Under the pieces are notes generated by a model, which saw only the letters and a list, made by a program, of their open reading frames with translations, was not told the origin of the DNA and made no database searches. Shown piece after piece: positions 1,032-22,266 of a stretch of 30,438 bases of DNA (the stretch's first letter is position 1; each line of letters begins with the position of its first letter). This DNA is from a virus. Location of the stretch: IMG/VR virus record IMGVR_UViG_3300027834_000293, positions 1 to 30,438 of that record, one strand, 5' to 3'. The translations under genes and the position numbers were made by a program.

Positions 1032-1150
1032 TCATCACCCCGGCCACGCCCCGCGGCCAGCCCCGGATCCAACGCATCACGCACCATCTCAATGAGAGAA
1101 ATGTCTGCATGCGCCGAGGTCAGAACGCACAGGCACATCAAGGAAACCCG

Positions 1151-1606: not shown

Positions 1607-1615
1607 GGAATCACC

Positions 1616-3352
1616 ATGAAAACCACCCGCTGCGCAATCTACACCCGCAAGTCCAACGAAGAAGGGCTCGACATGGCCTTTAACTCACTCGACGCTCAGC
1701 GCGAAGCGGGCATCGATTACATCAAGAGCCAGAAGCACGAGGGCTGGCTGCTGGTTGAAGATGAGTACAACGACGGTGGATTCTCTGGCGGCACCATGAA
1801 ACGACCTGGGCTCAAGCAGCTGCTTGATGACATCGACCGGGGCCGCATTGATGTCGTCGTGGTCTACAAAGTCGATCGGCTGAGCCGATCGCTCAGTGAT
1901 TTCGCGCGGATGATGGATGTGTTTGATGAGAAGCAGGTCTCGTTTGTGTCGGTGACGCAGCAGTTTAACACCACGACCTCGATGGGACGCTTGACACTCA
2001 ACATGCTGCTCAGCTTCGCCCAGTTCGAACGTGAGGTGTCAGGCGAGCGAATCCGCGACAAGCTCGCGGCAACGAAGAAGAAGGGGTATTGGGTCGGCGG
2101 CACACCACCGCTCGGCTACCGGCTCCAGACGGGCGAAGAATCCAAGGGACTCTTCATCATTCCAGAACAAGCGGATCTTGTTCGCACAATCTTCGAGCGG
2201 TATATTGATGGCCCTTCACTCGTTGCCGTGGCAAATGAACTCAACGAAGCCGGATACACCACGAAGCAATGGACGAGCAAAAAAGGCATTATTCATGGTG
2301 GAAAACGACTCTCTCAAAAATACATCCATAGCGTCCTGACCAACCGGATCTATGTCGGCAAAATTACCCATACCCGGGGCGATCACACCGAGATCTACGA
2401 CGGCTTGCATGTGCCCATCATCGATCAGGTTACATGGAACACCGCGCAAAAACTCATGACCAAACAGGACCGCAAGAACCTCCACCGCTGGACCCATCCG
2501 CATCTACTCAAGGGCAAGCTTCGCACGAGTGATGGATTCGCGATGAGCCCGACCTCCACGCATCGACCACTCACCAAGAAGAGTGAGACCAAACAGAAGC
2601 GGCTTGTGCGGTACTACATCAGTCAGAAGGCGATCAAGCACGGCTTCAAGAACTGCCCGATCAAGACCATTAATGCAGTGCATCTCGATGAACTGGTCCG
2701 AGGGCTAGTGCTCGGACACCTCAATCACAGCGATCTTGACCGGCAATCCACAGAAGTCCGGGACCGCTGGATCCGGAAAGCCATCCACGAGGTCACGCTT
2801 GCGCCAGACTCCATCACGATCCAACTTGATACCAAGAAGATCGAGCAACTCCAACGGCATTCCTTCAGATCACCGCCGGATGTCATCCCGTCGCGTCCGG
2901 TCTGCTTGCGAATACCAGAGATCGATGACCGCGGCGAGCATATCGAGCTGAAACTGCAGCTCCAAATCAAGAAACTCGATGGTCGCCGGTTGCTTCTCAG
3001 CCCCGATGGCCATGACCTGATCATTCCTTCCACGCCCGAACCAAGACAGCACATTGTTGATGCCATTGGTCTGGCGTACCGCTGGCATGATGGGCTTATC
3101 AAATCCGGGCTGCAAATTCGTGAATACGCAATCGAGCATCAACTCAATCGCACGCGCATCCTGAATCTGCTCCCTCTCACCCTGCTCAGCCCAAATATTC
3201 TCCGTGACGCACTCGCAGGAACACTCCCAAGCAGAATCACACTCGGCGATCTCCTGACCGCTTCAAAGCAACTCGACTGGAATCGCCAAGCTTCTGAACT
3301 TGGGATCAATACTGCGACGAGCCAGTTCAGCACCACACAATCCGCCAGCTAA
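1616..3352 (+). CDS. Large serine recombinase without zinc-ribbon cysteines
   Basis: This 578-residue site-specific recombinase would cut and exchange DNA through a serine-phosphate intermediate. The resolvase domain occupies about residues 1-150: YTRKS with catalytic Ser13, the VVYKVDRLSRS motif, and a QQFNTTTSMGRLTLN segment leading into LLSFAQFEREVSGERIRDK. The recombinase domain follows at about 160-270, with VGGTPPLGY. At about 295-345, where the usual zinc ribbon has CxxC pairs, this protein reads LLKGKLRTSDGFAMSP and later RYYISQKA, so three of the four cysteines are gone. This matches a known zinc-less subfamily in which the equivalent text is like DDRGNRMSP. About residues 480-560 form a ParB-like helix-turn-helix tail. 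It starts 9 nt after the DUF2924 gene. It is intact and probably active; its target site is unknown. Confidence 0.93.
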   Translation: MKTTRCAIYTRKSNEEGLDMAFNSLDAQREAGIDYIKSQKHEGWLLVEDEYNDGGFSGGTMKRPGLKQLLDDIDRGRIDVVVVYKVDRLSRSLSDFARMMDVFDEKQVSFVSVTQQFNTTTSMGRLTLNMLLSFAQFEREVSGERIRDKLAATKKKGYWVGGTPPLGYRLQTGEESKGLFIIPEQADLVRTIFERYIDGPSLVAVANELNEAGYTTKQWTSKKGIIHGGKRLSQKYIHSVLTNRIYVGKITHTRGDHTEIYDGLHVPIIDQVTWNTAQKLMTKQDRKNLHRWTHPHLLKGKLRTSDGFAMSPTSTHRPLTKKSETKQKRLVRYYISQKAIKHGFKNCPIKTINAVHLDELVRGLVLGHLNHSDLDRQSTEVRDRWIRKAIHEVTLAPDSITIQLDTKKIEQLQRHSFRSPPDVIPSRPVCLRIPEIDDRGEHIELKLQLQIKKLDGRRLLLSPDGHDLIIPSTPEPRQHIVDAIGLAYRWHDGLIKSGLQIREYAIEHQLNRTRILNLLPLTLLSPNILRDALAGTLPSRITLGDLLTASKQLDWNRQASELGINTATSQFSTTQSAS

Positions 3353-3996: not shown

Positions 3997-4230
3997 CAAA
4001 TCGTTTACTGTGGAGTCGGCTGCGTTTGCAACCGGCTTACAAATAGCGGGGGCACGATTCGATTTGACTAACTCTATTCACACAACCAAATTTCGCTACC
4101 GGTAGAACACACAAGCTCTTACATTCAGTGGCATACTGACTGCACATATGATTCTCAAGAAGCCGAGTCAAATGGTTTCAAAAATCAATCTAATTGAATA
4201 TACACTAAATGTCATAATTATTTGTATTTT

Positions 4231-4325
4231 TGACCCATAGATCTATAACTCATGTACAACCACGCCCTCCATAGCCGAAATGGCCCATGGAACCGAGAGA
4301 TTGGTTGCTACGAACCGAGTTTGTT
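4231..4325 (+). promoter_or_regulatory. Conserved promoter/leader block of the first RHS gene
   Basis: This block aligns with 18412-18505 (minus strand) upstream of the second RHS gene over about 95 bp with a single 1-nt gap. Shared parts are TGACC near the start, the palindrome TAGATCTA, TGTACAA, and a nearly invariant core reading AAATGGCCC, a purine, TGGAACCGAGAGATTGGTTG, then ACGAA. AACC and GGTT within the core can pair. It ends about 40 bp before the start codon, so it probably includes the promoter and 5' leader. The exact -35/-10 boxes are not evident. Confidence 0.7.
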
Positions 4326-4362
4326 AGCAGCAAGTATATGCATCATTCCGCAGGAGTCAGAT

Positions 4363-7300
4363 ATGAATCGTCGAGATACTTTTGTTTCAAGTATTGGACT
4401 AGCAACAATTTACGCAAGCCTTACGTTCGGTTATGGAGGAGTTCCGGATTCAACGGGGAAGCCTTGCGATGATTGCTCTTGCGAAGGCGAAACCCAGGGC
4501 GGATCAGGTGGTGACGGCGGGAAAGACAGCAGCGATCCGATCAATCTATCGACGGGGGACTACCAGCTCGCGCAGACCGATCTCATGATACCTGGCCGAG
4601 GCCTTAACTTCGAGATTCGGCGTTTTTATAGATCTTATAGTGGGCTCCAAACCGTTGACGGGACCCCAAACGCATATGAAGTAAATGACGCACATGCAAT
4701 CAACAATCGCTTTGCAAATTTAAACGGCCCATCCCCGCTTGGTGATCATTGGGATTTCAGCTACAACATGCGAATATCGACACCGAGGCCTGTGATTGAT
4801 TATGTGGTTGCCGATCCTGCTCTTTCTCCTGAACCTATGGCGTTTGAAGTCTATCCACTCGAAATTAACCTCCTGAGTGGAGCAGGGCGAGTTGACAGAT
4901 TTGAGTCCTACGATTCGGTAATTGACCCGAATGAGCCCGGTTTAACAATCGGCCAATACCGGCACGACGAAGAACAAATTGCAAAGAAGGTCTTGTACAG
5001 AGGCTTTGACCAGACCATTGCTATTCTTGATTCGAACATGGTTGAATATCGTTTTTTCCCTATCTACAAAACAGCAGGCGGGGCATTCCATCAGTTTGCT
5101 GGGCGGCTTGAGTCCATCGTGGATCGCAACGGGAACACCATCCAGTTTGAGTATGAGCTCACTGATACGAGCGGAGCGCCTCGAATCGATTACGCCATCG
5201 ATACGCTTGGGAATCAGATTGATTTTGTATACCACGACCAACTTGATTATGACGATAACCCATCACCACAGATGTCTACTTCCGAACAATGGGATGAGCA
5301 CACAATCTGGATTATCGCGGATCTTATCGACGGCGTGGGAGGCGTAGGCACTCCACGTAGGGAATGGCGTTACGAGTACATCGACGGAATATCCACTGCT
5401 TACTTTAATCCACTTCTTAACAGTGTGACTCTCCCACAAATACAGGATGACGCAGAGTTCCCTATGATGAATAATCCTCAGCACGCACGCTTTGATCAGA
5501 CAGGCGATCGGAAGTGGCAGTTTGAGTACACGGAAGTTACACAGTGGGAAAATCGTTTGATGACGAAGGTAACGAATCCCAATGGGGATATCGTGCTAGA
5601 AAACGAATATTGGGGAGACGTAATAGACCAAGGCGCGAATGCGGTTGGGAGAAACATTGCACGTGTCGCCCATCAGCATTATGGCAACTCAACATATTCC
5701 TACGTCGCTTCGCACACAGATCCGACTCTATATGCCAATGCAGCAGAGAGCATAGATCTCGCTCTCAACGATCTTTACTATGATTACTATGTCTGGGTCA
5801 ATGATCGACGAGGTGCAGTTACAAGATTTAAATACAGTGGCAACGACATTGGCAATCGCGCATCGGGCCCATTCCATCGCGCGCTTCTAGAGAAGGTTGA
5901 ATACGATGGATTTGTAGAAAACAACGCAAGTGACATCGTTTGGGCAACTATCGATGCAAGCGGAATTCACACATGGTATTACCTTGACTCGAGCAATCCT
6001 AACGCGATACCAGTAGCGTTCAGTGGACCATCTGGAACTGAACGCTATGTAAAAACATGGGAATATGACGAACACTGGAATCCTATTGGAGAGCAAAGCC
6101 AAGGTCTAATCACGCCGCCAGCAGCAATCTCACTTGACCAAGACTTTTCCTCATACTTATTTGATCGGTACAGCGAAGACCCACTTCGTTGGGGCGCGAT
6201 GCTGAGCCGCACCCGCTACGACAGTGATGGAGCAGGAGGAACAACAGAATCTATCACAGAAGATTGGCTCTATGACTTCGAGTTCGGTGGCGGCTCGGGC
6301 GGCAGCGTTTGTGGGTGCAGTTCAGATAGCTTCGTCACCGCTTACAGAGACGGGGACAATAATGTCACGCTCAAGGAATATGACGAATCAATAAACGCCG
6401 TGACCGGTCGCGCAACCGGTAATCTTCTCAAAACCTACCATGATATTCCGAATTTCACGGGTAGTGCAATTTCCTTAGCTGATCCAACAAACGCGACATC
6501 GGTTGAGGAGTTTGATTACAACTTGCACGGGCAAATTACCAAACACATTCATGCCCACAAGGAAACTCTTACCGGATCATTGCAGCGAGAAGATCGCTTT
6601 GAATATGATACCGACCAGGCTTCACATAGCTATGGCCGCATGGTTCGCAAAATTGTGGACTATGGCGATGGCAATTTGAATCTGACAACGGAGTATCTCT
6701 ATGATTCAGTTGGGAATCTGATTCAACAGATTGATGCTGGCGGCGATGTGACATCGCTCTACTACAACCAGGATTCAAATCTGATTATTAAGGAACAGTT
6801 CAACTCGGCAATGACAGCCCTGTTTTCACGCGTTGAGTTCTATTATGACGCGAACGGGAATGTTGTTCAGCAAGAGGTCGCGAATTTAACCACGGATTCT
6901 CAAAGCCCTGCTGGCGCACTCTTCAATCCAGACGATCCATCTTTCATCACGCTATATGAGTACGACATCCACGACTATCGCACCAAAGCCGCGCATGAGC
7001 ATGGGGAAATGCAGAGTTCAACAGCAAGCATTACGGACCCGGCCAATGGAACAGTGTCCATACCGGTCTTCCCAGCAAGCGATGCCGATCACCTTGCCGT
7101 CGAAGAGTGGGTTTACGACGGAGCCAAAAATCTTGTGAAACATGTCACGGGGGAATCCGCAGGAGGGTCTGATCCAACAGTGGCCCACTATGCGTACGAC
7201 GCTCGCGATCAGCTTATAAGGCAGTTCTATGGCATTGACGAACAATCAATCCTTGTTGAAATCGAGTTTGACCGCGATCAAAAGGGACGCATAACTGAGG

Positions 7301-10300
7301 CTAGGGTGAATCCTGATGATGTATCGAGGACTCAAACCTACATCGTCGAGTACGACGGCTTTGACCGCACAACCGCGATCATCGATCCAATGGGGAACAC
7401 CGTAGCGTACGAATACGACAACAATCACAATCTATTAGGTTCAAGTCTTCTCGGCCCGTACGAACAAGACACGGTCGCTAGTGACACTGCTATTTCTGTT
7501 AAACTGATGGACATGATCTATGAGTATGATGCTCGTGATCGCCGAACCCACGAGAAGGTACAGGTCTATGGCTACAACTACGATGGCTCAACTGGCATTG
7601 GCTCTGTGACCGAGCAGATTACCGAGTCCGTATACAACGAGGACGACTCAATCAAACAAATGCTTGTTCCAACATCTACCGGAACACCGAACCTGATCGA
7701 GTATTTTTACGATACAGCAAGCAGGCTTGAATCAACCATCGAGAGTGATGGAAACGGCATGCTTTATATCTATGATGAGGATTCAAATCTCATCACTCAA
7801 ACGAGGACTGACGCAGCCTCAGATGGCTCGGGGGCTATTGAACGGTTCACAACAGATTATCATTACGATGACCTGCATCGAATCAAGAGAATCATTCAGG
7901 ACCCACAAGGCTTGGCTCTGGAAACATTACTCAGTTACGACACACGCTCAAATCTTGTTAAACAAACTGATCCGAGAGGCAATGTTACAGAGAATTTGTT
8001 TGACAGCATGAATCGGCTCATCCAGTCATCGGTAGCAATGACCGACACCGGAGTTGGCAGCGGCGCTCCCATCGGCACTATCGACACCTTTAAGACATAC
8101 GACGATTCGAGCCGCTTGACATCAGAAACCGACGACAACGGCAACACCACATCCTATGAATACGATGCACTCAACCGGATCACAAGAATCGTGATGCCAG
8201 ACTGTGAGGATTACACTACGACCTACGATCAAAATGGCAATGTGGATACCTACACCGATGCCCGAGGCGTGGCTATTACACACTTGTATGATCTGAATAA
8301 CCGTCTTGATACACGCACAATCTCAGGTGCGAGCGTTGCAGGGACAACATCAGAGAGCTTCCTCTATGATGGCCTTGGTCGGATGATTGCGGCATCGAAT
8401 GACTTTGCGGTGATTGTACGCGAGTACGATTCACGCTCAAATATCATCCGTGAACTCCAGAATGTTGACGCACCAAGCTTCCCTGAATTGAGCGATCGAG
8501 TGGTCCAGTACGCCCACGACGATGCCAACAACATGACACAAATCGTGTACCCGAGCGGCAGGACGATCGATCGGTCGTATGACATCCTCAATCGCCTCAC
8601 GGGGATCAGCGATCCGCTCATGACCAATCCTCTGATCACACAGTTTGATTACATCGGCGGCCGCCTCCTCCGCCGAACCAACGGGAACGGGACACAGACC
8701 GATTATGCGTACAACGGATACGAAGGGCATTATTTGGGCGGTAGCGATCTTGGATTTGGCCGAGTGGCATCAATCAGCACGACCAACTCCGTATCAGGCA
8801 CAGAGCTCGATGCGTTCGACTTTACTTGGGATGCCAACCAAAACCGCACCAGCTATCAGGATGTTGGCTCTGATATGATCAACCGACGGGTACGCAGCTT
8901 TGGGTACGATTCCTCGAATCGGTTGATCTCCACCGATGTTGACTACCCGGATCCGCTCACCGATTACACAGCACCAATCAATAATGGGATCACAAACTAC
9001 ACCCTCGATGGCGTGCATAACCGCGTGGATGTCACCGGGTTTGATGAAAACGGAACCCCAGTAGCTTCCTACGCCGTCAATGAGAACAACCAATACACCA
9101 GCACACTGAACGCTGACGGTACAGAGTGGGTATATCTCTACGATGAAAACGGAAACTTGGTCCTCAAGGCTCAGAATAATTTTGCAGACTTTAACAATGA
9201 CTATGCGTTTGACACTTTTGATCTGAACCCATTTCTTGCTGCATACGAGAACCAAGATCCATCGGCTGATATCAATGGGGATGGTTCATTTGATTTTGGT
9301 GATATCAACGCGTTTATGAATGAGTTCACCGCCAATCAGGGTGTGGACCTAGAGCATGAACACTACACCTATGATTTTCGGAATCAGCTCATAGGAATAT
9401 CCATGAAATCCGGCCAACTTGATGTAAACAGAGTGGTGACGAATCGGTACGACCCGCTGGCACGCCGCGTGGTTGAGCATGTCGACATGAACGGCGACGG
9501 CTTCAACGACGGCGAGAAGCAGATGGTCTACGGCTGCGCCTCCCTATGGGAAGTGATCGAACAACTCGACCTCCTCAACAACGATTCCGTGCTCAGCACA
9601 CATGTGTTCGGGCTGGGGATCGACGATGAGGTGCACTACCAGCGACCCAACGCCGCAACGGACAAGAATATCTGGTCGCACCGTGATGATCTCAACTCGC
9701 TCACCAGCATCACCAATGAGTTCGGCGATATTCTTGAGCGGTACGAATACGGCGACTACGGGCAGGTCCGGATCTTGGACGAGATCGGAACAGAGCAGGG
9801 GTTGTCAATCTTTGGAGCGTTCCACATCTACACCGGGCGGCCATTGATCTCGGGGACGGAGTTGTTTGACTACCGGTTCCGGGTTTTGGATCCAGATACG
9901 GGGAGATTTGCGCAGGAAGATCCTATGGGATATGTTGACTCTATGAACTTGTATAGCTATGTCAATCAGTCCCCATTAGTTTACTCTGACCCATTTGGAT
10001 TAATGATTGATCCCGGCTGGGTCAGGCACGCAATGAATGAACGCAATAAAGGCGGTAACGATTATGCACCATTTACCAAAGATCAAGCGAACACCTGCTT
10101 TAACGCCCTAGCCTGTATAGGTGATTGCATAGATGATGTGTCTGGCAATTTAGGTGGTCTTTTGGCTGGTCTTGCTGGAGCACAAAATTTGCCTCCAGCA
10201 CTTGGAACAGGTCAATTGAGAAATATTAACCCTGTTCCTCGACCACTCAGAGCCAAATTTGGCGGGTTATTCACAGGGAGAGGTGGCAACACTACAAGTT

Positions 10301-10470
10301 ATCAAAACTTGTGGAAAAAACTACCTGGTGGACTAAAAAAAGGTGTCCCATTGAAAGTTTTCAAATTTCTTGGAAGAGCAAATATTGCAGTCCTTCTTGC
10401 TGAAGGAGCCGTGATGCTTGCGATAGAGGGATATTGTGCTGTTGAATGTGCGAACGGGAATCGCAAATAA
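4363..10470 (+). CDS. Giant secreted RHS/YD-repeat protein with EF-hand pair
   Basis: The start at 4363 is set by the CAGGAG ribosome site 6 nt upstream and by the hydrophobic N-terminal segment; 2035 residues result. After a Gly/Cys-rich linker comes the DPINLSTGDY entry motif of RHS proteins, then long runs of YD repeats (patterns such as YEYDALNRI, FLYDGLGRM, YDENGNLV) that build a beta-cocoon shell. A Gly/Cys motif with CGC sits near residue 650. Residues 1609-1655 carry two EF-hand-like loops (DFNNDYAFDTFDLN and DINGDGSFDFGDIN), a planctomycete-style dockerin pair. The conserved RHS core ends with YRFRVLDPDTGRFAQEDPMGY and DPFGL at 1876-1880. The remaining 155 residues are a Gly-rich, hydrophobic, AT-rich tip of unknown activity containing several cysteines. 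The protein is probably exported and cell-associated. It shares upstream sequence and core with the opposing RHS gene at 12497-18361. Confidence 0.93.
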   Translation: MNRRDTFVSSIGLATIYASLTFGYGGVPDSTGKPCDDCSCEGETQGGSGGDGGKDSSDPINLSTGDYQLAQTDLMIPGRGLNFEIRRFYRSYSGLQTVDGTPNAYEVNDAHAINNRFANLNGPSPLGDHWDFSYNMRISTPRPVIDYVVADPALSPEPMAFEVYPLEINLLSGAGRVDRFESYDSVIDPNEPGLTIGQYRHDEEQIAKKVLYRGFDQTIAILDSNMVEYRFFPIYKTAGGAFHQFAGRLESIVDRNGNTIQFEYELTDTSGAPRIDYAIDTLGNQIDFVYHDQLDYDDNPSPQMSTSEQWDEHTIWIIADLIDGVGGVGTPRREWRYEYIDGISTAYFNPLLNSVTLPQIQDDAEFPMMNNPQHARFDQTGDRKWQFEYTEVTQWENRLMTKVTNPNGDIVLENEYWGDVIDQGANAVGRNIARVAHQHYGNSTYSYVASHTDPTLYANAAESIDLALNDLYYDYYVWVNDRRGAVTRFKYSGNDIGNRASGPFHRALLEKVEYDGFVENNASDIVWATIDASGIHTWYYLDSSNPNAIPVAFSGPSGTERYVKTWEYDEHWNPIGEQSQGLITPPAAISLDQDFSSYLFDRYSEDPLRWGAMLSRTRYDSDGAGGTTESITEDWLYDFEFGGGSGGSVCGCSSDSFVTAYRDGDNNVTLKEYDESINAVTGRATGNLLKTYHDIPNFTGSAISLADPTNATSVEEFDYNLHGQITKHIHAHKETLTGSLQREDRFEYDTDQASHSYGRMVRKIVDYGDGNLNLTTEYLYDSVGNLIQQIDAGGDVTSLYYNQDSNLIIKEQFNSAMTALFSRVEFYYDANGNVVQQEVANLTTDSQSPAGALFNPDDPSFITLYEYDIHDYRTKAAHEHGEMQSSTASITDPANGTVSIPVFPASDADHLAVEEWVYDGAKNLVKHVTGESAGGSDPTVAHYAYDARDQLIRQFYGIDEQSILVEIEFDRDQKGRITEARVNPDDVSRTQTYIVEYDGFDRTTAIIDPMGNTVAYEYDNNHNLLGSSLLGPYEQDTVASDTAISVKLMDMIYEYDARDRRTHEKVQVYGYNYDGSTGIGSVTEQITESVYNEDDSIKQMLVPTSTGTPNLIEYFYDTASRLESTIESDGNGMLYIYDEDSNLITQTRTDAASDGSGAIERFTTDYHYDDLHRIKRIIQDPQGLALETLLSYDTRSNLVKQTDPRGNVTENLFDSMNRLIQSSVAMTDTGVGSGAPIGTIDTFKTYDDSSRLTSETDDNGNTTSYEYDALNRITRIVMPDCEDYTTTYDQNGNVDTYTDARGVAITHLYDLNNRLDTRTISGASVAGTTSESFLYDGLGRMIAASNDFAVIVREYDSRSNIIRELQNVDAPSFPELSDRVVQYAHDDANNMTQIVYPSGRTIDRSYDILNRLTGISDPLMTNPLITQFDYIGGRLLRRTNGNGTQTDYAYNGYEGHYLGGSDLGFGRVASISTTNSVSGTELDAFDFTWDANQNRTSYQDVGSDMINRRVRSFGYDSSNRLISTDVDYPDPLTDYTAPINNGITNYTLDGVHNRVDVTGFDENGTPVASYAVNENNQYTSTLNADGTEWVYLYDENGNLVLKAQNNFADFNNDYAFDTFDLNPFLAAYENQDPSADINGDGSFDFGDINAFMNEFTANQGVDLEHEHYTYDFRNQLIGISMKSGQLDVNRVVTNRYDPLARRVVEHVDMNGDGFNDGEKQMVYGCASLWEVIEQLDLLNNDSVLSTHVFGLGIDDEVHYQRPNAATDKNIWSHRDDLNSLTSITNEFGDILERYEYGDYGQVRILDEIGTEQGLSIFGAFHIYTGRPLISGTELFDYRFRVLDPDTGRFAQEDPMGYVDSMNLYSYVNQSPLVYSDPFGLMIDPGWVRHAMNERNKGGNDYAPFTKDQANTCFNALACIGDCIDDVSGNLGGLLAGLAGAQNLPPALGTGQLRNINPVPRPLRAKFGGLFTGRGGNTTSYQNLWKKLPGGLKKGVPLKVFKFLGRANIAVLLAEGAVMLAIEGYCAVECANGNRK

Positions 10471-10512
10471 CGACCGTTGAAATCAGATTTGATTTGCAAC
10501 TAAGGACACGAC

Positions 10513-10932
10513 ATGAACATGGCTGAATGGTTATTAGTTATTGCCGCACTAGCTGCCAGCGTAATATTTATAACATATTGGCATGAAAGACATTTGTTTA
10601 ATCGCAGAAAAAAACGCCTTGCTTCAAGGCCCGTCATGAATGAGAATGAGTGGCGAGCTGAGTATTTTCATAATGCATCAAGTGAAATTTTGCGATATAT
10701 CAGCGAATTGCTGTCAAATGAAATCGGTGTCGGAGTGACTCAACTTCGCCCTGAGGACCAATTTGGCATAGAGTATGCGCTAGAATATTCGAAGTGGCCA
10801 GTTCCAATTGGCGATAGCAGTCTGGAGAAAATCTATTATTGTATCATTGAGCAATATGGTGTCGAAGTGTCTCCAAACGATACGCTCACAAGCATTATTA
10901 CAGCCTGTGATGAGCGGGCGAAGGGGGAATAG
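10513..10932 (+). CDS. Small membrane-anchored protein, possible immunity partner
   Basis: This 139-residue protein starts at an ATG preceded by AAGGA and lies 42 nt after the RHS stop, so it is probably in the same transcript. Residues 4-24 are one hydrophobic membrane helix, followed by a basic stretch (NRRKKR) that would stay in the cytoplasm. Residues 45-139 form a soluble acidic domain with helices around SSEILRYISELLSNEIGVG and a SLEKIYYCIIEQYGVEV segment that loosely recalls acyl-carrier-like folds. I do not recognise the family. Its position right behind the variable RHS tip is where immunity genes of polymorphic toxins sit, and that is the only basis for the suggestion. The TAG stop lies exactly at the edge of the inverted-repeat element that follows, so the C-terminus may have been altered by the insertion. 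Confidence 0.75.
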   Translation: MNMAEWLLVIAALAASVIFITYWHERHLFNRRKKRLASRPVMNENEWRAEYFHNASSEILRYISELLSNEIGVGVTQLRPEDQFGIEYALEYSKWPVPIGDSSLEKIYYCIIEQYGVEVSPNDTLTSIITACDERAKGE

Positions 10933-10933
10933 T

Positions 10934-10961
10934 GGTCCCGTAGGGTCCAAAAACTCAGCCG
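10934..10961 (+). repeat. Left terminal inverted repeat
   Basis: This 28-bp sequence begins GGTCCCGTAGGGTCC and ends AAAAACTCAGCCG. It is perfectly repeated in inverted orientation at 11426-11453. The outer 2 bp of the element, on this side GT, differ from the other end by one base. Confidence 0.9.
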
Positions 10962-11425
10962 AAGCGAGTTCGGTAATAGAGGTCGCGCAACCCTCTTCGA
11001 AAAACAAACAGAGACACTTTTCTGAGAGTGCTTCAGAATCTGAGTCGGGTTGCAAAACCTGACCCGCTGGTTATGTGCTTTTAGGCTCCTATGTGGGGGG
11101 CCAGCACTTTGTGATGATCCCGAATCGTTGATTCTGGTTCAAAAATAAGCATAGCATCCGCGATGTACAGTCTCCGAACACGAAGCGTGTGGCACCTGGT
11201 TGACTCTGTTGCGACGGCCATGTCCCAATCATACGGCATCTTGAGGGCTCGCGCATTGACCGAATGATGCATCGAACCAGAGATCATAGTGACTCGACAA
11301 TCAGCACGCGGCGACCCGAAACTCTTCCGGCTTGTGTTTCGTGTCAGGGAACGGATACGAGCTACGTGAACAACCTCTCAAACACCGAAAACAGAAGGAC
11401 ACTAAATCGCTGGACCGCTACTCAC

Positions 11426-11453
11426 CGGCTGAGTTTTTGGACCCTACGGGACC
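11426..11453 (-). repeat. Right terminal inverted repeat
   Basis: It starts CGGCTGAGTTTTTGG and is the exact reverse complement of the left repeat. The sub-motif GGACCGCTACT at its outer edge (11449-11459) is also present 37 bp inward at 11412-11422, suggesting a nested or partly duplicated end. Confidence 0.9.
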
Positions 11454-11459
11454 GCTACT

Positions 11460-12482
11460 TTAGTTGTCTGCCGGTATCTCAATTAGGCGGCTGTGCTGGC
11501 TGCGAGCATTTCTTTGCATGTGATTAATTATTATTTTTGCTCTTCTATTTGTGAGTTCCACGCTATCTATATATAGACTTGATGTGTTGATATCATAGCC
11601 ATCAATATTATCCACCTCATAAATAGCCCCAATCACGGTGTCTACTGCAAGCAACATCCCGTCTTCAGACGCCACCAAGACCCATTTATCATACCTGTCG
11701 CAGATTGTCCCGCGACATACATCACGAAACACGTCCAAAACTCCATCATTTGTTTGTAATTTATATAATTTAACTAATGAAAATCTACGATCTGTTTCAC
11801 CCTCTTGACTCTCAACTACAACTATATCGCTTGCGAATTCAATCGATTCGATCGCATCATGCTCGTCAGCCATTATCAGCTTCCGACCACCTCCGTGCCG
11901 ATCTATCTTCACTAACCCCGCACTCTTTGATATGACAACCAAACTATCTGTATCAAAATAAATCTGAGTGCTTATTTTGCCCTGCAAAGCATAGAGTGAA
12001 CTGTCACCCCCAACAATTAGCAACACCGTGTCCCCGCTAACAGTTTGATATGCTATACAAAACTCTTTTGTTTCATCAGAATAGACAGCGTTTTTAACAT
12101 ATCCATCGCCAATATCTACTAAAGCTTGTTGGTTATAATTTTTATTAAGAATAAGGACCTGCTCGTCCATTATGTATAACCAACCAAATATCCCGTCCTT
12201 GACACAAGAATAAATCGGCACTACAGCCTTTGTATCGGTCCAGTTATTGCTAATCTTTGCATCTAGCAACTCCAGCACTCCATCCGACCTTACAAATGGC
12301 CTTTTAGTCCTTCCCATTTCAAGTTTACCGAACTCGATTCCGTTTTTTGATCGATAAACCACTTCTTGATGAGAGTTATTAGGTTCGCACAAATAGATGC
12401 GATTAGTATTTTCGGCTAGAAAACCTTCTGCATCGTGGGCTAATCCAATCGCCAATAATGATATAGCAATATACTTGTACAT
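11460..12482 (-). CDS. Secreted beta-propeller-like protein, possible RHS partner
   Basis: This 340-residue protein begins 14 nt after the stop of the minus-strand RHS gene with a GGGAG ribosome site, so it is almost certainly co-transcribed. Residues 1-19 look like a Sec signal peptide (hydrophobic ISLLAIGLAH stretch). The rest is rich in short beta-strand patterns such as DGVLELLDAK, GWLYIMDEQVLIL, GDTVLLIVGGDSSLYAL and GMLLAVDTVIGAIYEVD, which resemble blades of a beta-propeller; no catalytic motif is visible. It is strongly AT-rich compared with the RHS core, like the tip next to it. A role as immunity protein or accessory of the neighbouring RHS tip is inferred from position alone. It ends 4 nt outside the inverted-repeat element. 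Confidence 0.8.
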   Translation of the reverse strand: MYKYIAISLLAIGLAHDAEGFLAENTNRIYLCEPNNSHQEVVYRSKNGIEFGKLEMGRTKRPFVRSDGVLELLDAKISNNWTDTKAVVPIYSCVKDGIFGWLYIMDEQVLILNKNYNQQALVDIGDGYVKNAVYSDETKEFCIAYQTVSGDTVLLIVGGDSSLYALQGKISTQIYFDTDSLVVISKSAGLVKIDRHGGGRKLIMADEHDAIESIEFASDIVVVESQEGETDRRFSLVKLYKLQTNDGVLDVFRDVCRGTICDRYDKWVLVASEDGMLLAVDTVIGAIYEVDNIDGYDINTSSLYIDSVELTNRRAKIIINHMQRNARSQHSRLIEIPADN

Positions 12483-12496
12483 GTCTCCCAGCCTTT

Positions 12497-15400
12497 CTAT
12501 TCATTATACTCGTTTATCTGATCAATTAGGTCGTCAAAACTTCCGGGCTCATTTGATCTGTCCGCCATTGAACACAGCCCCATACACGGCTGCAAGCCTG
12601 GGTGAACGCCCTTTAAAAATTTACCGGGCGATCCGCCGCTGCGTTTCTTTTTCTTTCCACACATCACTTCACAAACCAATTGGCATGTATCGAAATTCCA
12701 ATTGCGATTATTGATATCAAATGGTTCTTTTTGCCACCATTTTCTCTTGTCAACAAATTCATCATCTTCATCTAAATCCCAGTCGTCATTCTGGTCATCT
12801 ATATTATACATAATGCCCTGTATGTGCCCGCCGCTCACTGCCACCTTGTTCACCATATACGGAGCTTCCGGGTTAAAGCCGAACGACGATTGCAAACTAT
12901 TATAATTGCTGGGCATCAAATATGAGTTGTCATATACATTTCCGTCATTCAAATAATCTGGTATAACTGCGTATAATCCAAATGGGTCCTTTTGTTTAAG
13001 TGGCGATGACTGGACATACCCATACGCACTCATCGAATCAACATACCCCAGCGGATCCCGCTGCCTGAACTGCCCAGTCTCCGGATCCATCACCCTAAAC
13101 CTGTAATCAAACAACCCCGTCCCCGTGATCAGGGAGCGGCCGGTGTAGAGGTGGATGGCGTAGACATCCGTGTTTACCCGTTCGAGCCCCGTTGCCGGAT
13201 CGAAGATGGTAACCTGGCCGTAGTCGCCGTATTGGTAGCGTTCTTTCACATCGCCGTTCACATCCGTGACGCTGGTCAGGGAGTTTAGATCATCACGATG
13301 GGACCAGTAGTCCTCAGTCGTCACCAGGTCCTCGATCCGGTACGACACCTCGTCATCAATACCCAGCCCGTAGATATGGGTCGATACGAGTGTCTCAGGG
13401 AGCGTGCCGTTGTCAAGCTGAATCTTTTCGATAACTTCCCATAGGGAGGAGCAGCCGTAGACGAGCTGATTCTCAATCGCACCGGTCCCGTCGTCCACCG
13501 ATTCGAGTACACGACGCGCGAACGGGTCGTAGGTGTTTGACACGGTTGTTAAAACATCCGATCCATTTTTGAACTCGATATCGATCAACTGGTTCCGGAA
13601 ATCGTAGGTGTAGTGCTGATTGTCAAGATGCAATCCGGTTGTAAATGCCGCCAGGAACTCTGCGATATCTTGGTTGTCCCATAGGCCGTCGTTATTGAAA
13701 TCGGCAGATGATTCCTGGTTACCAAATGCAGTAAGAAATGCATTGATATCAAAGGTATCGAGCTCGTAATCCCCTGTAAAGTCCGTGACATCGTACTGGG
13801 CCTTGAGCACCATGTTCCCGTTCTTGTCGTAGGAATAAATCCATTGACCCCCGCCCTCGCGCGGCGAGAAGGTGTACTGGTTGTTCTTCACATGATCCGG
13901 TAGATCCTCCGCGACATCCTTGTAGATGCCGATCGGGGCACCGGCTTCTTCAAAGCCGGTCACCGAGAATCGGTTGTGTACGCCGTCGAGGTCGTAGGCG
14001 GTGATCCCGTTGTTGGTCGGGGTTGGGAAATCGGTATTGGGGTCCGGGAAATCAACATCCGTCGAAACAAGACGGTCCGATGAGTCGTACCCAAAAGCAC
14101 GCTCGCGGCGGTTCTTCATGCCCGAACCGTCGTCCTTATAACTCGTACGGTTCTGGCTCTCGTCCCAGCGGAAGCTGAACTCATCCAAGGTGCCAACTCC
14201 AGCTTTGGTGGTTTTGATCTTGGAAACCCGGCCGAATCCGTGGTCATCAATATGTACCAACGCTCCTTGGTACCCGTCGTATTCATAGGCCGTGCGAGTG
14301 CTGTTCCCGTTGTTGCGGCGTTCAAGCCGTCGTCCGACATAATCGAACCCGGTCACGACTGACATCGGCGTATTCTGCACATCATCAATAGCGATCAAAC
14401 GATTAATCGAATCGTACGACCGCTCGATATCCCGCCCGTGTGGATAGAGAATCCGGGATGTATTGTCGGCCAGATCAAACTCATAATCCACCACCCGATC
14501 AGAGGCTATCGGGAAACTATTGGCCCCATCAGCATTCTGGATCTCGCGGACGACCAGACCACGCGAGTCGTACGACCGGGTGATCCTGGTCAACAGGTTC
14601 TCCGCCACTGTGATCCGCCCGAGCCCGTCATAAGTAAAGTCTTCGAACTGGCTCCCGGCCGGGATTGCCCCGGAGACATTGACGGCACGGCGAGTCAGCC
14701 GATTATTGAGATCGTAAGTGAGATCAAGCACGACCCCGCGTGCATCGGTGAGCTTAGAGGCCACGCCGTTGTTGTTGTAATCGGTCAGGTAGTTTTCACT
14801 GATAACAGGCATCATGACCGCAGTCCGGCGGTTGACCGCATCGTATGCGTAGCCCGTAGTCTGCCCATTATCGTCTGTTTCTGCGATCACCCGGCTTGAA
14901 TCGTCATAGACCATCGTGGTCAGAATCTCGGCGTTTGTAGCAAGAGCCGGATCATTCTCGGGCCCATCACCGTCGGCGGTCATCCGGACTTGTGATGCGA
15001 TCAGCCGGCTGAGGCCGTCGTAGTCATACGAGGTCAGATTGCCACGCCCGTCGATCTCTTTGACCATGTTGGATCGTGAATCGTACCCCCATTGAGTCAA
15101 GTTCAATGCGCCATCTGTAGAAGTAACACGCCGATCAAGCTCGTCATATGTATAGGTTTTTGTGAAACGCTGCTGACCCGAGCCGATCGTTGAGAGATCG
15201 ATCTGATCGATCAGTGCCAGGTTTGAATCAAGATCGTACCCGTATCGAACTGTATTGCCGGCACCATCTTCAATGTACTCAAGACGGCCAACTGAGTCAT
15301 AGAAATATTCGGTGGCATTGGAAACCCCGGCCTGGCCCGAGGGCGCATCCACCTGACGAAGCGATGAATCCTTATTGTAGGTGTACGTCGTAATCCGGTG

Positions 15401-18361
15401 CTGCACTGCTGACTGAGCACCGCTCAGGTAGTCGAAGACCGAGATATCTTGTTCAATCATCCGATCCTTGGAATCATACTTGAGCACCTCGTTGTACAGC
15501 ACAACCGCGGTGTCACCACCGCCGATATCCAGATCCTCATCATAGGGACCGAGCACTTCAACCTCTACACGGTTATGGTTCTTGTCGTATTCAAAGTTGG
15601 CGACATTCCCCTTTGGATCGGTGATGCTGATGAGCCGACCATGCCCGTCGTACAAGAACTGCTCGGTTTGAGCGAGTCCATTGATGGCATCCGGGTTGAC
15701 AATTCGTTTCTCAAGCCGTTTGTTCACATCGTAATCAAACTGGACAACAAGCTCGGTTGCCGAGCCCGCACCATTGGTCTGTCGGTAAAGCAACTCTCGA
15801 AAATCATATTCATAGGTGATCTTGTTGTTCGCGTCACCGGCCAATGACGCGTGCTGATCTCGCACCGCTTCGCCATCTTGGAACTCGATCAAGTTGCCAT
15901 TCGCGTCATAGACCCACGCCTGGGTCACCCAATCTTCGCCGGTTGGTGCTGTGGCGCGATGAGACGAATCTTCTTCAACGGTTTCATTGGGAATATCACT
16001 CTGCTCGATACTCTGCTTGGTAAGGAGATCACGCAGGTCATATTCGTAAACCGTCGAGATAGTAGGATTTCCTAAAACTACGGCAAAGCTGTCATCAATG
16101 TTTTTAACCTTCTCGATCACCACATTCCCGTTGGCATCATAGAAATAATCTGTTTGTGCCAGAAGCGTTTGTTGAGCTGCGGAATCCCAATACTGCTCTC
16201 TGACAAGCTGACGGCCTTGATTGTAGAGGTAGATCCTCACATCGCCGTCGGGCTCAGTGATCTTTGAAACATTCCCAATGGCATCATACTCGAAGTGTGT
16301 TTCAAGAATCTCGCCGTTTATATCAACTATCTGAGTTTTAACCTTGCCGTTACTGGAAATATTTTCTGGGCTAGCACTGGTGCCGTATGCATCCGGGTAA
16401 TAGAGGTACTCATCGACTGGGGTGTATGGCTGAGGACTCCCATTCACTAACCTGGTTGTTTCAGCATGCGTGTACGTTGCAACATTCCCGCCGCCATTCG
16501 GAACATACGAATAGTTCTCAATTGCAGCAGGCGTTCCCAGACCGCCAGGGATGTCGTGACGGATCTGCGTCACATTCCCATTGACATCATAATCCTTCTC
16601 GGTATGGTTCCCGTTCCCGTCAATTATGGTCGTGGCAAACCTCCCTGATCCACAGCCGCACCCACCACCCACACTAGGCCAGAAACTGAATCCGTCGTAC
16701 TCATATGTGGTTGTGATCCAGTCCGGGTGTGAGGTGATCGGATCACCATTACCGTCAACCACAGTCCCACCTGGCTTGGAAATCACTTCGGTGAGTGATT
16801 GGCGTGATCGTGCGTCACCAGCGCCTGAGTTGTATTTATACTCTACAACATCACCATTTGGCTCGGCAAAACTAGTTTGACTCCATTCATCGTCAAATCC
16901 AAAGTTTTTCGTTACGGCGACATCGGTTGAACGCTCAGCGGGCAGGAGATCAAACACAGTTGCTTGCGAAGTCGGTGTATCAGCAAATTTCCACCGACCG
17001 CTGGCACCTGCTGCTTCATCAAACCACACGAGCTTTCCTTCGGCATTCTGGGGAACCTTGCCAGGGTAATCTGTTCTACTGATCAGCTTGTGCCCATCAT
17101 TCCACCCATCGGGCTGACTAAACACATGACCACCGGAGTACACGAGCTTGACAATGAATCCGTCCCGCTTCTGCACCCAGATCGCAATCTCATCAGACTC
17201 CGATGGATCTTTGTTTGAACCATCCACATTTGTAAGCATATGAGTATAGGTATCTCCTGCAAATACCTGGCGGTACAACCTTCGACTTCGATCTACAAAG
17301 TAATCATTGAAGAGCGGTTGCTCGTAGGTATTTTCAAGTATCACCAAACCGTTCTCATCGGTGATCTTCGTCAACAAGCCAGTGAACTCCGAGTTCGGGT
17401 GATAGTCATATTTGATGCTCCGACCATTGAGAAACCTTTCGTGCTCCGGTGGTAATACGAATGTACCGGAAGCCTCTTTATGAGCGGGCAAGACCACCTC
17501 GGTAAGCTGGCGAATTTCTAAGTCGCCAGTTAAGAACTCGTCACTGAACTGATACTCATATACCACTTCACGACCGACATGATCCGTCACTTTCCACAAC
17601 AGGTCACCGAGTACCTCTCTAGCCACTGAGTCCAAGCCGGCCCATGGTGCATTCGGGTCGCTGTAATAGCTGAAATCCAATCTGTTCCCCAAGCCATCAG
17701 AAACATACATAATCCGATTTCTGACCACGCCGTTTTCATAGGTAATGGTCACAACATTCCCGTTGCGATCCGTGATCGACTCCAACATTCCTACCCCATT
17801 GCCTGCTGGTGTAGGAAAGAACTGGTAAGTCGTATTGTCACTCGTGATATACTTTACAGGATCAAGACTGGTTGTGTACTCGATCACCGCATCATACTGA
17901 TCTGCACTGTAGGTGGTTGTTGTTGCCGTAGTCTCAGGGTCAAATGTCACCATCCGTTCGTTTCCGAGATACATTTCTATTTTATATGGTTGCCCCAAGC
18001 CATCAATATTAAATGTTTCGATCCACATTTCATAGTTATGGCTCCAGTTTAAGCCCATGGCAGACCGACGCCCGCCTTCAAAGCCGGTACTCACTCGGGA
18101 GCGAGAGCGATATGAGCGTTCAAGGTACACATCGAGACCACGACCGGGAAGAAAAATATCGACATGACTATCGATAAACTCGCCGCGAGGGAGATACACC
18201 GGATCATTAAGCTCGTCGGGTTCTGCGGTCCCATCGGTCCCGCCCTGGCCTTCATTTGGTGGGCAATCGTTTGGTCCATCCTCGTGATCGGGGTCACCAG
18301 CTATTGAGAAGGCCGCAGCCAAAGAAAGGGCCATGAGTACCGTAAGTAGCCGTATTTTCAT
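12497..18361 (-). CDS. Second giant secreted RHS/YD-repeat protein
   Basis: The ATG at 18361 follows an AAGGAG ribosome site by 8 nt and begins a good Sec signal peptide (KIRLLTVLMALSLAAAFSIAG); the frame open further upstream is just leader sequence. The product is 1954 residues. The order of parts mirrors the first RHS protein: acidic Gly-rich linker, an RHS entry region (DPVYLPRGEF), YD repeats, a GGGCGCGSGRF motif near residue 565, an EF-hand/dockerin-like pair at 1527-1573 (DFTGDYELDTFDIN, DFNNDGLWDNQDI), and the core end YRFRVMDPETGQFRQRDPLGY with DPFGL at 1792-1796. The 158-residue tip is unrelated to the other one, acidic in its middle, with a CQLVCEVMC cluster, a basic KKKKR run and a PCMGLC pair. 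Tip activity is unknown. It converges on the first RHS gene and shares its leader. Confidence 0.93.
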   Translation of the reverse strand: MKIRLLTVLMALSLAAAFSIAGDPDHEDGPNDCPPNEGQGGTDGTAEPDELNDPVYLPRGEFIDSHVDIFLPGRGLDVYLERSYRSRSRVSTGFEGGRRSAMGLNWSHNYEMWIETFNIDGLGQPYKIEMYLGNERMVTFDPETTATTTTYSADQYDAVIEYTTSLDPVKYITSDNTTYQFFPTPAGNGVGMLESITDRNGNVVTITYENGVVRNRIMYVSDGLGNRLDFSYYSDPNAPWAGLDSVAREVLGDLLWKVTDHVGREVVYEYQFSDEFLTGDLEIRQLTEVVLPAHKEASGTFVLPPEHERFLNGRSIKYDYHPNSEFTGLLTKITDENGLVILENTYEQPLFNDYFVDRSRRLYRQVFAGDTYTHMLTNVDGSNKDPSESDEIAIWVQKRDGFIVKLVYSGGHVFSQPDGWNDGHKLISRTDYPGKVPQNAEGKLVWFDEAAGASGRWKFADTPTSQATVFDLLPAERSTDVAVTKNFGFDDEWSQTSFAEPNGDVVEYKYNSGAGDARSRQSLTEVISKPGGTVVDGNGDPITSHPDWITTTYEYDGFSFWPSVGGGCGCGSGRFATTIIDGNGNHTEKDYDVNGNVTQIRHDIPGGLGTPAAIENYSYVPNGGGNVATYTHAETTRLVNGSPQPYTPVDEYLYYPDAYGTSASPENISSNGKVKTQIVDINGEILETHFEYDAIGNVSKITEPDGDVRIYLYNQGRQLVREQYWDSAAQQTLLAQTDYFYDANGNVVIEKVKNIDDSFAVVLGNPTISTVYEYDLRDLLTKQSIEQSDIPNETVEEDSSHRATAPTGEDWVTQAWVYDANGNLIEFQDGEAVRDQHASLAGDANNKITYEYDFRELLYRQTNGAGSATELVVQFDYDVNKRLEKRIVNPDAINGLAQTEQFLYDGHGRLISITDPKGNVANFEYDKNHNRVEVEVLGPYDEDLDIGGGDTAVVLYNEVLKYDSKDRMIEQDISVFDYLSGAQSAVQHRITTYTYNKDSSLRQVDAPSGQAGVSNATEYFYDSVGRLEYIEDGAGNTVRYGYDLDSNLALIDQIDLSTIGSGQQRFTKTYTYDELDRRVTSTDGALNLTQWGYDSRSNMVKEIDGRGNLTSYDYDGLSRLIASQVRMTADGDGPENDPALATNAEILTTMVYDDSSRVIAETDDNGQTTGYAYDAVNRRTAVMMPVISENYLTDYNNNGVASKLTDARGVVLDLTYDLNNRLTRRAVNVSGAIPAGSQFEDFTYDGLGRITVAENLLTRITRSYDSRGLVVREIQNADGANSFPIASDRVVDYEFDLADNTSRILYPHGRDIERSYDSINRLIAIDDVQNTPMSVVTGFDYVGRRLERRNNGNSTRTAYEYDGYQGALVHIDDHGFGRVSKIKTTKAGVGTLDEFSFRWDESQNRTSYKDDGSGMKNRRERAFGYDSSDRLVSTDVDFPDPNTDFPTPTNNGITAYDLDGVHNRFSVTGFEEAGAPIGIYKDVAEDLPDHVKNNQYTFSPREGGGQWIYSYDKNGNMVLKAQYDVTDFTGDYELDTFDINAFLTAFGNQESSADFNNDGLWDNQDIAEFLAAFTTGLHLDNQHYTYDFRNQLIDIEFKNGSDVLTTVSNTYDPFARRVLESVDDGTGAIENQLVYGCSSLWEVIEKIQLDNGTLPETLVSTHIYGLGIDDEVSYRIEDLVTTEDYWSHRDDLNSLTSVTDVNGDVKERYQYGDYGQVTIFDPATGLERVNTDVYAIHLYTGRSLITGTGLFDYRFRVMDPETGQFRQRDPLGYVDSMSAYGYVQSSPLKQKDPFGLYAVIPDYLNDGNVYDNSYLMPSNYNSLQSSFGFNPEAPYMVNKVAVSGGHIQGIMYNIDDQNDDWDLDEDDEFVDKRKWWQKEPFDINNRNWNFDTCQLVCEVMCGKKKKRSGGSPGKFLKGVHPGLQPCMGLCSMADRSNEPGSFDDLIDQINEYNE

Positions 18362-18411
18362 CCGAATCGCTCCTTCATAATCTTCATTCAACAATCGAAT
18401 AACTCGACACC

Positions 18412-18505
18412 CAAACCAGATTCGTGGCAACCAATCTCTCGGTTCCACGGGCCATTTGGGCTAAAGTGGAGCGAGATTGTACACATATTCTAGATCTACT
18501 GGTCA
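18412..18505 (-). promoter_or_regulatory. Conserved promoter/leader block of the second RHS gene
   Basis: The minus-strand copy of the block at 4231-4325, starting TGACCAGTAGATCTAG and containing the shared core through ACGAA. It ends about 50 bp before the ATG at 18361. Because the same block precedes both RHS genes while the protein N-termini after it differ, it is likely a common regulatory sequence and not coding. The stretch 18506-18693 beyond it shows nothing recognisable. Confidence 0.7.
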
Positions 18506-20431: not shown

Positions 20432-21019
20432 TTAACGCAGAGCATAACCCTCCATTCGTTCACCGATCGCGAGCACCACCGACTCGGGCTCAAGATGATC
20501 AAGATACCGGATTGTCGTCAGCAATGATGTGTGCCCGAGTTGCCGCTTGATCACCGATATATCAACGCCTTCAGCCCTGAGCTCTGCCGCGTGGGTGTGC
20601 CGCAGGCCGTGGGCGTGCACCCGCTTGTAGATCCCCGCTACTCGTCCGAGCTCAGGAAGCTTCCGTCTCAGGTACCCCTGCGATACAGCACGACCGCTCG
20701 CAGTCATGAAGAGCCGGTCGCCATCTGACTCACCAAGCTCTCTGTGCTCGTTGATCCATGCGCCAAGCACCCTCGCTCCTACCGGGTCGATCCCCACCGT
20801 CCTGGCCCTTCCTCCCTTGCCGTGCAGCACCCGTATCGCTCCTCGCTCAAGATCCATATCGCACGGCCTCAAAGCCAATGCCTCCGAAAGTCTCAGCCCC
20901 GATCGGTACAGCACCATGATCAGCGCGTAGTTTCTCCGATCCGTCCACTTCTGTTTCCCGCACGCATCGAGCAGATCTTTCACCTCACGCCGCGTCAGCA
21001 CCTCGATCGGGTATCGCAT
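20432..21019 (-). CDS. Short tyrosine recombinase (catalytic domain only)
   Basis: This 195-residue DNA strand-exchange enzyme belongs to the phage-integrase/XerC-like family. All six catalytic positions are present: Arg43 in SGLRLSEAL, Lys68 in HGKGG, His137 and Arg140 in HGLRH, His163 in LGH, and nucleophile Tyr172 in TIRYLDH. Typical members have about 300 residues; the N-terminal SAM-like core-binding domain is absent and the protein begins directly at the catalytic fold (LTRREVKDLLDAC). The start is well supported by AAGGAG 6 nt upstream. A long inverted repeat lies just upstream of that ribosome site. A broken paralogous C-terminus is found at 18694. It is probably an active resolvase or transposition enzyme, possibly needing a partner for DNA binding. 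Confidence 0.92.
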   Translation of the reverse strand: MRYPIEVLTRREVKDLLDACGKQKWTDRRNYALIMVLYRSGLRLSEALALRPCDMDLERGAIRVLHGKGGRARTVGIDPVGARVLGAWINEHRELGESDGDRLFMTASGRAVSQGYLRRKLPELGRVAGIYKRVHAHGLRHTHAAELRAEGVDISVIKRQLGHTSLLTTIRYLDHLEPESVVLAIGERMEGYALR

Positions 21020-21030
21020 GGGTCTCCTTT

Positions 21031-21067
21031 CTATGGATACGCTTTGTCTATAAAGCCGTATCCATAG
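21031..21067 (-). other. Long inverted repeat upstream of tyrosine recombinase
   Basis: Perfect 11-bp arms CTATGGATACG (21031-21041) and CGTATCCATAG (21057-21067) continue inward as CTTT/AAAG with one bulged base, leaving a 6-nt loop (GTCTAT). It ends 11 bp before the recombinase ATG and abuts the AAGGAG ribosome site. It could be a recombination site for the enzyme, an operator, or a hairpin controlling translation. There is no T-tract, so it is not an ordinary terminator. Confidence 0.7.
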
Positions 21068-21094
21068 AGTGATACCTCATCACTCCCGCATCAG

Positions 21095-21322
21095 TCAAGG
21101 CAAATCGTCCGGCATTGTCCGCTGCACCCACCCGTCGGGCGGCTTGGCATCACCCAGCACAACCACAATCCCCTCGCGGCTGCACCCGAAGCAGGGCTCG
21201 GGCATCTGCTCGTGCTCCATAATAAACGAGACGGTCTTGCCTCCGCCGCACTTGGGACATCTACCCGGCGATGAAATCCTTCGCTCCATTTGTTTGACGC
21301 GGTGCGAAAACCGGCCGCTCAT
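21095..21322 (-). CDS. Small zinc-ribbon protein
   Basis: A 75-residue protein with two cysteine pairs: CPKCGGG at residues 22-28 and CFGC at 44-47, spaced as in a zinc ribbon. Its ATG overlaps the TGA of the preceding gene in an ATGA arrangement, which fixes the start and indicates translational coupling. A basic N-terminus (HRVKQMERR) precedes the ribbon. Small zinc-finger proteins of this sort are frequent in phage early or packaging modules, but the family is not identified. It may bind nucleic acid or a partner protein. Confidence 0.75.
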   Translation of the reverse strand: MSGRFSHRVKQMERRISSPGRCPKCGGGKTVSFIMEHEQMPEPCFGCSREGIVVVLGDAKPPDGWVQRTMPDDLP

Positions 21323-21735: not shown

Positions 21736-21814
21736 GGGGACCTCCAAAGAGTTTTCGATTCCAGGGGGATTGGCCTTGCAATCCAGTGGATGTCATGCCT
21801 TCATGGTGCGTGTT

Positions 21815-21831: not shown

Positions 21832-21850
21832 TTTGAAAGGACCATACAAA

Positions 21851-22252: not shown

Positions 22253-22266
22253 GATCCGCTGCATAT

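What the first reader, a model, noticed from the sequence alone, without database searches (positions are those of the whole stretch)
4363..18361. Two convergent RHS operons with different tips and partner genes
Both genes have matching cores ending in DPFGL, followed by unrelated tips of 155 and 158 residues, each followed by a different small gene (membrane-anchored 139 residues; secreted 340 residues). This is the layout of polymorphic toxin-immunity loci, but neither tip nor partner matches a toxin or immunity family I know, so they may be new.
Basis: partly seen in the sequence, partly recalled or inferred. Interest (0 to 1): 0.75.

Follow-up and report, generated by a model that had tools for sequence, protein, structure and literature searches.

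The report
Two RHS toxin-immunity pairs as cargo
Two giant secreted RHS proteins of a planctomycete-type mobile element each end in a different unknown tip followed by a different small gene, the usual layout of bacterial toxin-plus-antidote pairs; the kind is known, but these tips and antidote candidates match no known family.

Summary
Two convergent genes (RHS1 4363-10470 +, RHS2 12497-18361 -) have cores 58% identical over the last 667 residues. Both end in the autoprotease motif DPxG-X19-DPxG. The tips (155 and 158 aa) are unrelated, and each gene is followed after 42 or 14 bp by an unrelated small gene (139 and 340 aa).

Relatives of the core occur in Phycisphaerales. Seven intact genes of this clade, including these two, keep the core and carry seven unrelated tips and seven unrelated downstream partners. 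One relative's tip is a Peptidase_M91 effector domain. This supports polymorphic toxin-immunity pairs; toxicity and protection are untested. The tips and the 340-aa partner have no convincing relatives in the collections searched. The 139-aa partner has one weak relative, away from any RHS gene.

Not in the finding: all seven cores embed a GC-type-dockerin-like segment. The genes sit on mobile elements; the RHS2 side is syntenic with an element in another genome that carries an RHS gene in the same slot. The two operons share a leader sequence and are separated by an IS-derived element that abuts the partner stop codons.

New member of a known kind; activity of the tips open.

The parts
4225..4362 (+). 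promoter-leader region of RHS1; 52-nt core 4272-4323 repeated (88%) upstream of RHS2
   Evidence: inverted repeat I4; upstream alignment; no copy upstream of the relatives' RHS genes
4363..10002 (+). RHS1 core: N-terminal hydrophobic leader, DUF6531, YD/RHS repeats, dockerin-like segment (about 9184-9333), Rhs_assc_core, autoprotease motif DPMG-X19-DPFGL
10003..10470 (+). RHS1 tip, 155 aa plus stop, net charge +8, one hydrophobic helix (tip residues 128-146); proposed toxin
10513..10932 (+). partner 1 (139 aa): N-terminal TM helix, then an R/K-rich stretch and a probably helical domain; proposed immunity protein
   Evidence: weak relative P0005
10930..11457 (.). 528-bp IS-derived non-autonomous (MITE-like) element between the two partners, 32-nt terminal inverted repeats, no transposase remnant found
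11460..12482 (-). partner 2 (340 aa): hydrophobic leader, probably beta-rich; proposed exported immunity protein
12497..12973 (-). RHS2 tip, 158 aa plus stop, acidic, five Cys; proposed toxin
12974..18361 (-). RHS2 core: N-terminal hydrophobic leader, DUF6531, YD/RHS repeats, dockerin-like segment, Rhs_assc_core, DPLG-X19-DPFGL
18362..18500 (-). promoter-leader region of RHS2 with the 52-nt repeat 18412-18463
1109..3352 (+). DUF2924 plus large serine recombinase, left module preceding RHS1
20432..30438 (-). mobile-element backbone read toward RHS2: DUF2924 (cut by the record end), serine recombinase, HTH, sigma-70-region-2-like, D5 primase, ParB-methyltransferase, small-terminase-like HTH, tyrosine integrase; most genes syntenic with genome G329

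Best explanation
Each gene is an exported RHS polymorphic toxin with its own immunity gene. Shown: a hydrophobic N-terminal leader, a conserved YD/RHS shell region, an intact two-aspartate autoprotease motif (DPxG-X19-DPxG) directly before the tip, unrelated tips of about 16-18 kDa, and an unrelated co-directional gene 14-42 bp downstream. Inferred: the shell encloses the tip, cuts it off after DPFGL and releases it into or at a competing cell, while the downstream protein protects producer and kin from that tip alone; tip and partner are replaced together, leaving the core. The pairs ride as terminal cargo on integrating elements of Phycisphaerales-type planctomycetes, where a toxin-immunity pair would both harm non-carriers and penalise loss of the element. 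The specific activities are guesses: tip 1 (basic, one hydrophobic helix, membrane-anchored partner) could act on membranes like the Rhs pore-former Tse5; tip 2 has no assignable activity, and its partner, with its export leader, would neutralise it outside the cytoplasm.
For: Core relatives with swapped tips: RHS1, RHS2, L002, L003/L093, L092, L125 and L004/L126 have 33-68% identity in the last 250 core columns, 10-23% after the junction, and no tip-tip blastp hit better than E 0.04. All seven have DPxG-X19-DPxG, the spacing reported for Tse5 (PMC10684867). All seven have a different co-directional gene close downstream, pairwise unrelated; five of these begin with a membrane or export-type hydrophobic stretch, one of them a lipoprotein by its lipobox. 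L002's tip is Peptidase_M91 (E 2.9e-6, above its curated cut-off), a family Pfam describes as 'Effector protein'. Tips are lower in GC than their cores in six of seven cases. A close analogue, bacterial teneurin-like proteins, has downstream immunity genes verified by experiment (PMC13018210). Mobile-element cargo: RHS2 side syntenic with G329; serine recombinase and RepA precede L125's RHS.
Against: No toxicity or protection has been tested. Neither window tip has a recognised catalytic motif or relative. AlphaFold2 models of the partners are of too low confidence to use (mean pLDDT 53 and 38.5), so binding could not be examined. More distant Phycisphaerae RHS genes often have repetitive or low-complexity tails and no dedicated small downstream gene, so not every RHS gene of the class is such a toxin. 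The only relative of partner 1 (P0005) lies away from any RHS gene.
Confidence: 0.8

Rival explanations
1. The RHS proteins are surface adhesins or structural (teneurin-like or dockerin-tethered) proteins; the tips are fast-evolving tails without toxicity and the downstream genes are accessory surface proteins.
For: A dockerin-like segment lies inside every core, G001 and G002 use the same kind of segment in many other proteins, and more distant Phycisphaerae RHS genes have repetitive tails without partners.
Against: Drift does not explain a sharp drop at the protease junction together with a complete change of the downstream gene in all seven cases; one tip is an M91 effector peptidase; the autoprotease motif is intact in all seven.
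Confidence: 0.1
2. RHS1 or RHS2 is a decayed or orphaned copy: tip and partner were toxin and immunity once, but are now inactive cargo left by recombination and IS activity.
For: An IS-derived element abuts the 3' ends of both partner genes, with its terminal repeat overlapping the stop codon of partner 1; a frameshifted relative exists in G543; the tip of RHS1 does not have codon usage like the rest of the window.
Against: Both RHS frames are open over 1954-2035 codons, with ribosome-binding sites, intact protease motifs and a conserved leader; partner frames score best of six for codon usage.
Confidence: 0.07
3. The RHS genes serve the mobile element's own life cycle (a phage-like surface or fibre component) rather than bacterial competition.
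For: The record is classed as viral and the genes sit beside integrases, a D5 primase and a small-terminase-like gene.
Against: No capsid, portal, large terminase or tail gene was recognised among the window proteins scanned; core relatives lie in other element types (RepA, ArdC, Rep_trans neighbours) with the same toxin-type layout; the proteins have export leaders.
Confidence: 0.03

Closest known systems
Sec-exported RHS/YD polymorphic toxins (SEC/T2SS class of Zhang et al. 2012, PMC3482391)
   Same: leader, YD repeats, conserved core end, variable C-terminal tip, downstream partner; planctomycetes are listed among carriers of polymorphic toxins, and adhesive domains embedded among RHS repeats are described
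   Different: tips and partners match no family found here; the embedded domain is a GC-type-dockerin-like segment (the word dockerin does not occur in the held text of that paper)
Tse5 of Pseudomonas aeruginosa (PMC10684867)
   Same: DPXG-X19-DPXG autoprotease, tip of about 16 kDa; its membrane-acting tip is the model proposed for tip 1
   Different: Tse5 is a T6SS effector with a PAAR-like domain; no such domain was found here, and tip 1 has no detected sequence relative
Bacterial teneurin-like proteins (PMC13018210)
   Same: long YD-shell protein with autoprotease, variable toxin end and a diverse downstream immunity gene
   Different: teneurin-specific domains were not tested for; Pfam and NCBIfam reported no such domain here

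Membership tests
RHS polymorphic toxin | YD/RHS repeats and RHS-associated core | tested here: met
   PF05593, TIGR01643 and TIGR03696 hits in both proteins
RHS polymorphic toxin | two-aspartate autoprotease motif DPxG-X18/19-DPxG before the tip | tested here: met
   DPMG-X19-DPFG and DPLG-X19-DPFG; X19 in all seven relatives; X19 also in Tse5
RHS polymorphic toxin | tip exchanged among genes with the same core | tested here: met
   seven cores, seven unrelated tips
RHS polymorphic toxin | gene directly downstream that changes with the tip | tested here: met
   seven of seven, co-directional, pairwise unrelated
RHS polymorphic toxin | export signal | tested here: inconclusive
   N-terminal hydrophobic leaders read by eye; no signal-peptide predictor available
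RHS polymorphic toxin | tip is toxic and partner neutralises it | not testable with these tools
   needs expression and rescue assays
T6SS PAAR-RHS effector | N-terminal PAAR or other T6SS trafficking domain | tested here: not met
   no such Pfam or NCBIfam hit
GC-type dockerin (NF041540) | score above the curated cut-off of 29 bits | tested here: inconclusive
   26.0 and 28.7 bits here; 17-29 bits in four relatives; same place in the core of each
known toxin or immunity families | profile match of tips or partners | tested here: not met
   no meaningful Pfam match for tips or partners; partners also without NCBIfam or PADLOC match
acyl-carrier-protein fold (partner 1) | profile similarity over the whole domain | tested here: inconclusive
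   35-column similarity only, hhalign probability 60%; no PP-binding hit in Pfam

The most novel reading that the evidence does not exclude
Both tips and both partners are founding members of new toxin and immunity families, carried as exchangeable terminal cargo on a family of serine-recombinase integrating elements of Phycisphaerales, with a shell tethered or assembled through an internal dockerin-like segment.
Probability: 0.45. Interest if true: 0.6.

Novelty: new member of a known kind. Interest (0 to 1): 0.45.

Why it matters
Planctomycete RHS genes seem little studied: no paper in the library searched joins Phycisphaerae, dockerin and RHS. A clade in which one core carries at least seven unrelated tip-partner pairs is a compact source of candidate new toxins and antidotes, and gives simple paired predictions for assay. 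The place of these pairs as cargo of integrating elements suggests how they spread, and why a plasmid-like or phage-like element would carry them.

Tried and rejected
Structure prediction of both partners from single sequences gave unusable models, so no fold search was run. A weak PDB sequence match of partner 2 to a chain named Ika8 (E 6.5e-6, no stretch passing on its own) fits a beta-rich repeat protein but is not taken as homology. PlyG_CBD for tip 2 (E 0.029) and FtsL for partner 1 (E 0.13) are treated as chance. Searches for tip 1, tip 2, both partners, the whole RHS1 protein, the core and the D5 primase in viral contigs found no relatives; plasmids gave none for the tips and partner 1, phages none for the partners. 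A tRNA-derived attachment site for the 32-nt repeat was considered and dropped: ARAGORN finds no tRNA in the window, and the motif flanks transposase genes in L130 and L131. No Rfam family in the window. A GIY-YIG nuclease in the tip of L126 is suggested by eye only; Pfam did not report it.

Full report
What is there. The window is a 30,438-bp record classed as viral. Two long genes run toward each other. RHS1 (4363-10470 +) and RHS2 (12497-18361 -) have hydrophobic N-terminal leaders, DUF6531, YD/RHS repeats and the RHS-associated core. Their last 667 core residues are 58% identical and both end in DPFGL. The tips of 155 and 158 residues have nothing in common. RHS1 is followed after 42 bp by a 139-residue protein with one N-terminal membrane helix (KD 2.16) and an Arg/Lys-rich stretch after it. 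RHS2 is followed after 14 bp by a 340-residue protein with a weaker hydrophobic leader.

Relatives. A scan of species genomes with the core profile found its closest relatives in Phycisphaerales-type planctomycetes: L002 at 61% and L003 at 57% in the best segment, L004 at 39%. Genome searches added L091/L137 and L092 (both G329), L125 (G479) and a frameshifted copy in G543. Among seven intact genes the last 250 core columns are 33-68% identical for every pair, and the columns after DPxGL are 10-23%, the level of forced alignment. Tip against tip gives no blastp hit better than E 0.04. Each gene has a co-directional gene close downstream: a 119-aa lipoprotein (L002, lipobox by eye), 166-aa and 186-aa proteins with an N-terminal membrane helix (L003, L125), a 113-aa protein without a leader (L092), and a 285-aa LRR-like protein (L126, LRR_14 E 2.6e-4, below the curated cut-off). 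With the two of the window these seven partners are mutually unrelated. The tip of L002 matches Peptidase_M91 (E 2.9e-6, above cut-off), and the tip of the more distant L005 resembles the M35 peptidase (E 1.3e-6, just below cut-off). More distant Phycisphaerae RHS genes mostly lack a dedicated small downstream gene, and several have repetitive tails, so the layout is a property of this clade, not of every RHS gene.

Processing. All seven cores have DPxG-X19-DPxG at the junction. The same 19-residue spacing is reported for Tse5, where both aspartates are needed to cut off a 16-kDa tip held inside the shell (PMC10684867). The tips here are 149-213 residues. That the window proteins cut themselves is inferred.

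Embedded segment. A GC-type-dockerin-like segment lies before the RHS-associated core in RHS1, RHS2 and four relatives scanned (17-29 bits; curated cut-off 29), and the same pattern is visible in L002 and L091. G001 and G002 have many other proteins with a matching segment. Zhang et al. describe lectin-type domains embedded among RHS repeats (PMC3482391). A role in anchoring or assembly is a guess.

Novelty of tips and partners. Tips and partners gave no meaningful Pfam match; the partners gave none in NCBIfam or PADLOC. No convincing relatives were found in PDB sequences, 251 genomes of the order (tip 1, partner 2), 298 genomes of the class (tip 2), plasmids (tips, partner 1) or viral contigs. 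Single hits near E 0.01 were not counted. Partner 1 has one weak relative, P0005 in G145 (E 5e-5), which is not beside an RHS gene. A profile of the two touches acyl carrier proteins over 35 columns (hhalign probability 60%), a lead only.

Genetic setting. Reading toward RHS2 on the minus strand come DUF2924, serine recombinase, HTH, a sigma-70-region-2-like protein, D5 primase, ParB-methyltransferase, a small-terminase-like HTH and a tyrosine integrase. G329 has DUF2924 (69%), serine recombinase (63%), HTH (56%), D5 primase (53%), ParB-methyltransferase (84%) and integrase (66%) in the same order, followed by an RHS gene. RHS1 follows a second DUF2924 and serine recombinase on the left. L125's RHS follows a serine recombinase and RepA and is followed, beyond its partner, by ArdC; L126's lies near Rep_trans genes and a weak integrase match. 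No capsid, portal, large terminase or tail gene was recognised among the window proteins scanned. RHS toxin-immunity pairs as cargo of integrating elements is the reading that fits.

Details of the pair. The leaders of RHS1 and RHS2 share 52 nt at 88%, within a longer conserved upstream stretch that includes the palindrome TAGATCTA; no such match was found upstream of the relatives. This is more alike than the genes themselves and suggests shared control (inference). Between the partners lies a 528-bp element with 32-nt inverted ends (97%); the motif was not met in shuffled sequence. The end motif flanks transposase genes in L130 and L131 and recurs in five of seven genomes or records searched, with no hits for the reversed control. 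So the convergent pair is separated by a non-autonomous IS derivative, whose repeat overlaps the stop codon of partner 1.

Verdict. Layout and novelty are well supported; function is not shown. New member of a known kind.

Noticed in passing
10930-11457: 528-bp MITE-like element with 32-nt terminal inverted repeats between the two partner genes; the end motif flanks transposase genes in related genomes (L130, L131).
   Followed up: yes
4272-4323 and 18412-18463: 52-nt inverted repeat (88%) in the leaders of RHS1 and RHS2, with a hairpin and a shared upstream palindrome TAGATCTA; not seen upstream of relatives' RHS genes.
   Followed up: partly
18695-18853 and 20445-20603: 159-nt direct repeat (80%): the integrase 3' region is repeated on the other side of a 493-aa gene (18863-20344 -) that G329 lacks at this place, as if that gene had been inserted there.
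   Followed up: partly
1109-3352 and 28370-30438: two DUF2924-serine recombinase pairs at opposite ends in opposite orientation, suggesting two elements meeting head-on or a composite element.
   Followed up: partly
L126 6853-8319: relative's tip looks like a GIY-YIG nuclease by eye, with an LRR-like partner; not confirmed by Pfam.
   Followed up: no
L113 1531-1869: P0005, a small protein related to partner 1 (34% in a two-sequence alignment), encoded away from any RHS gene.
   Followed up: partly
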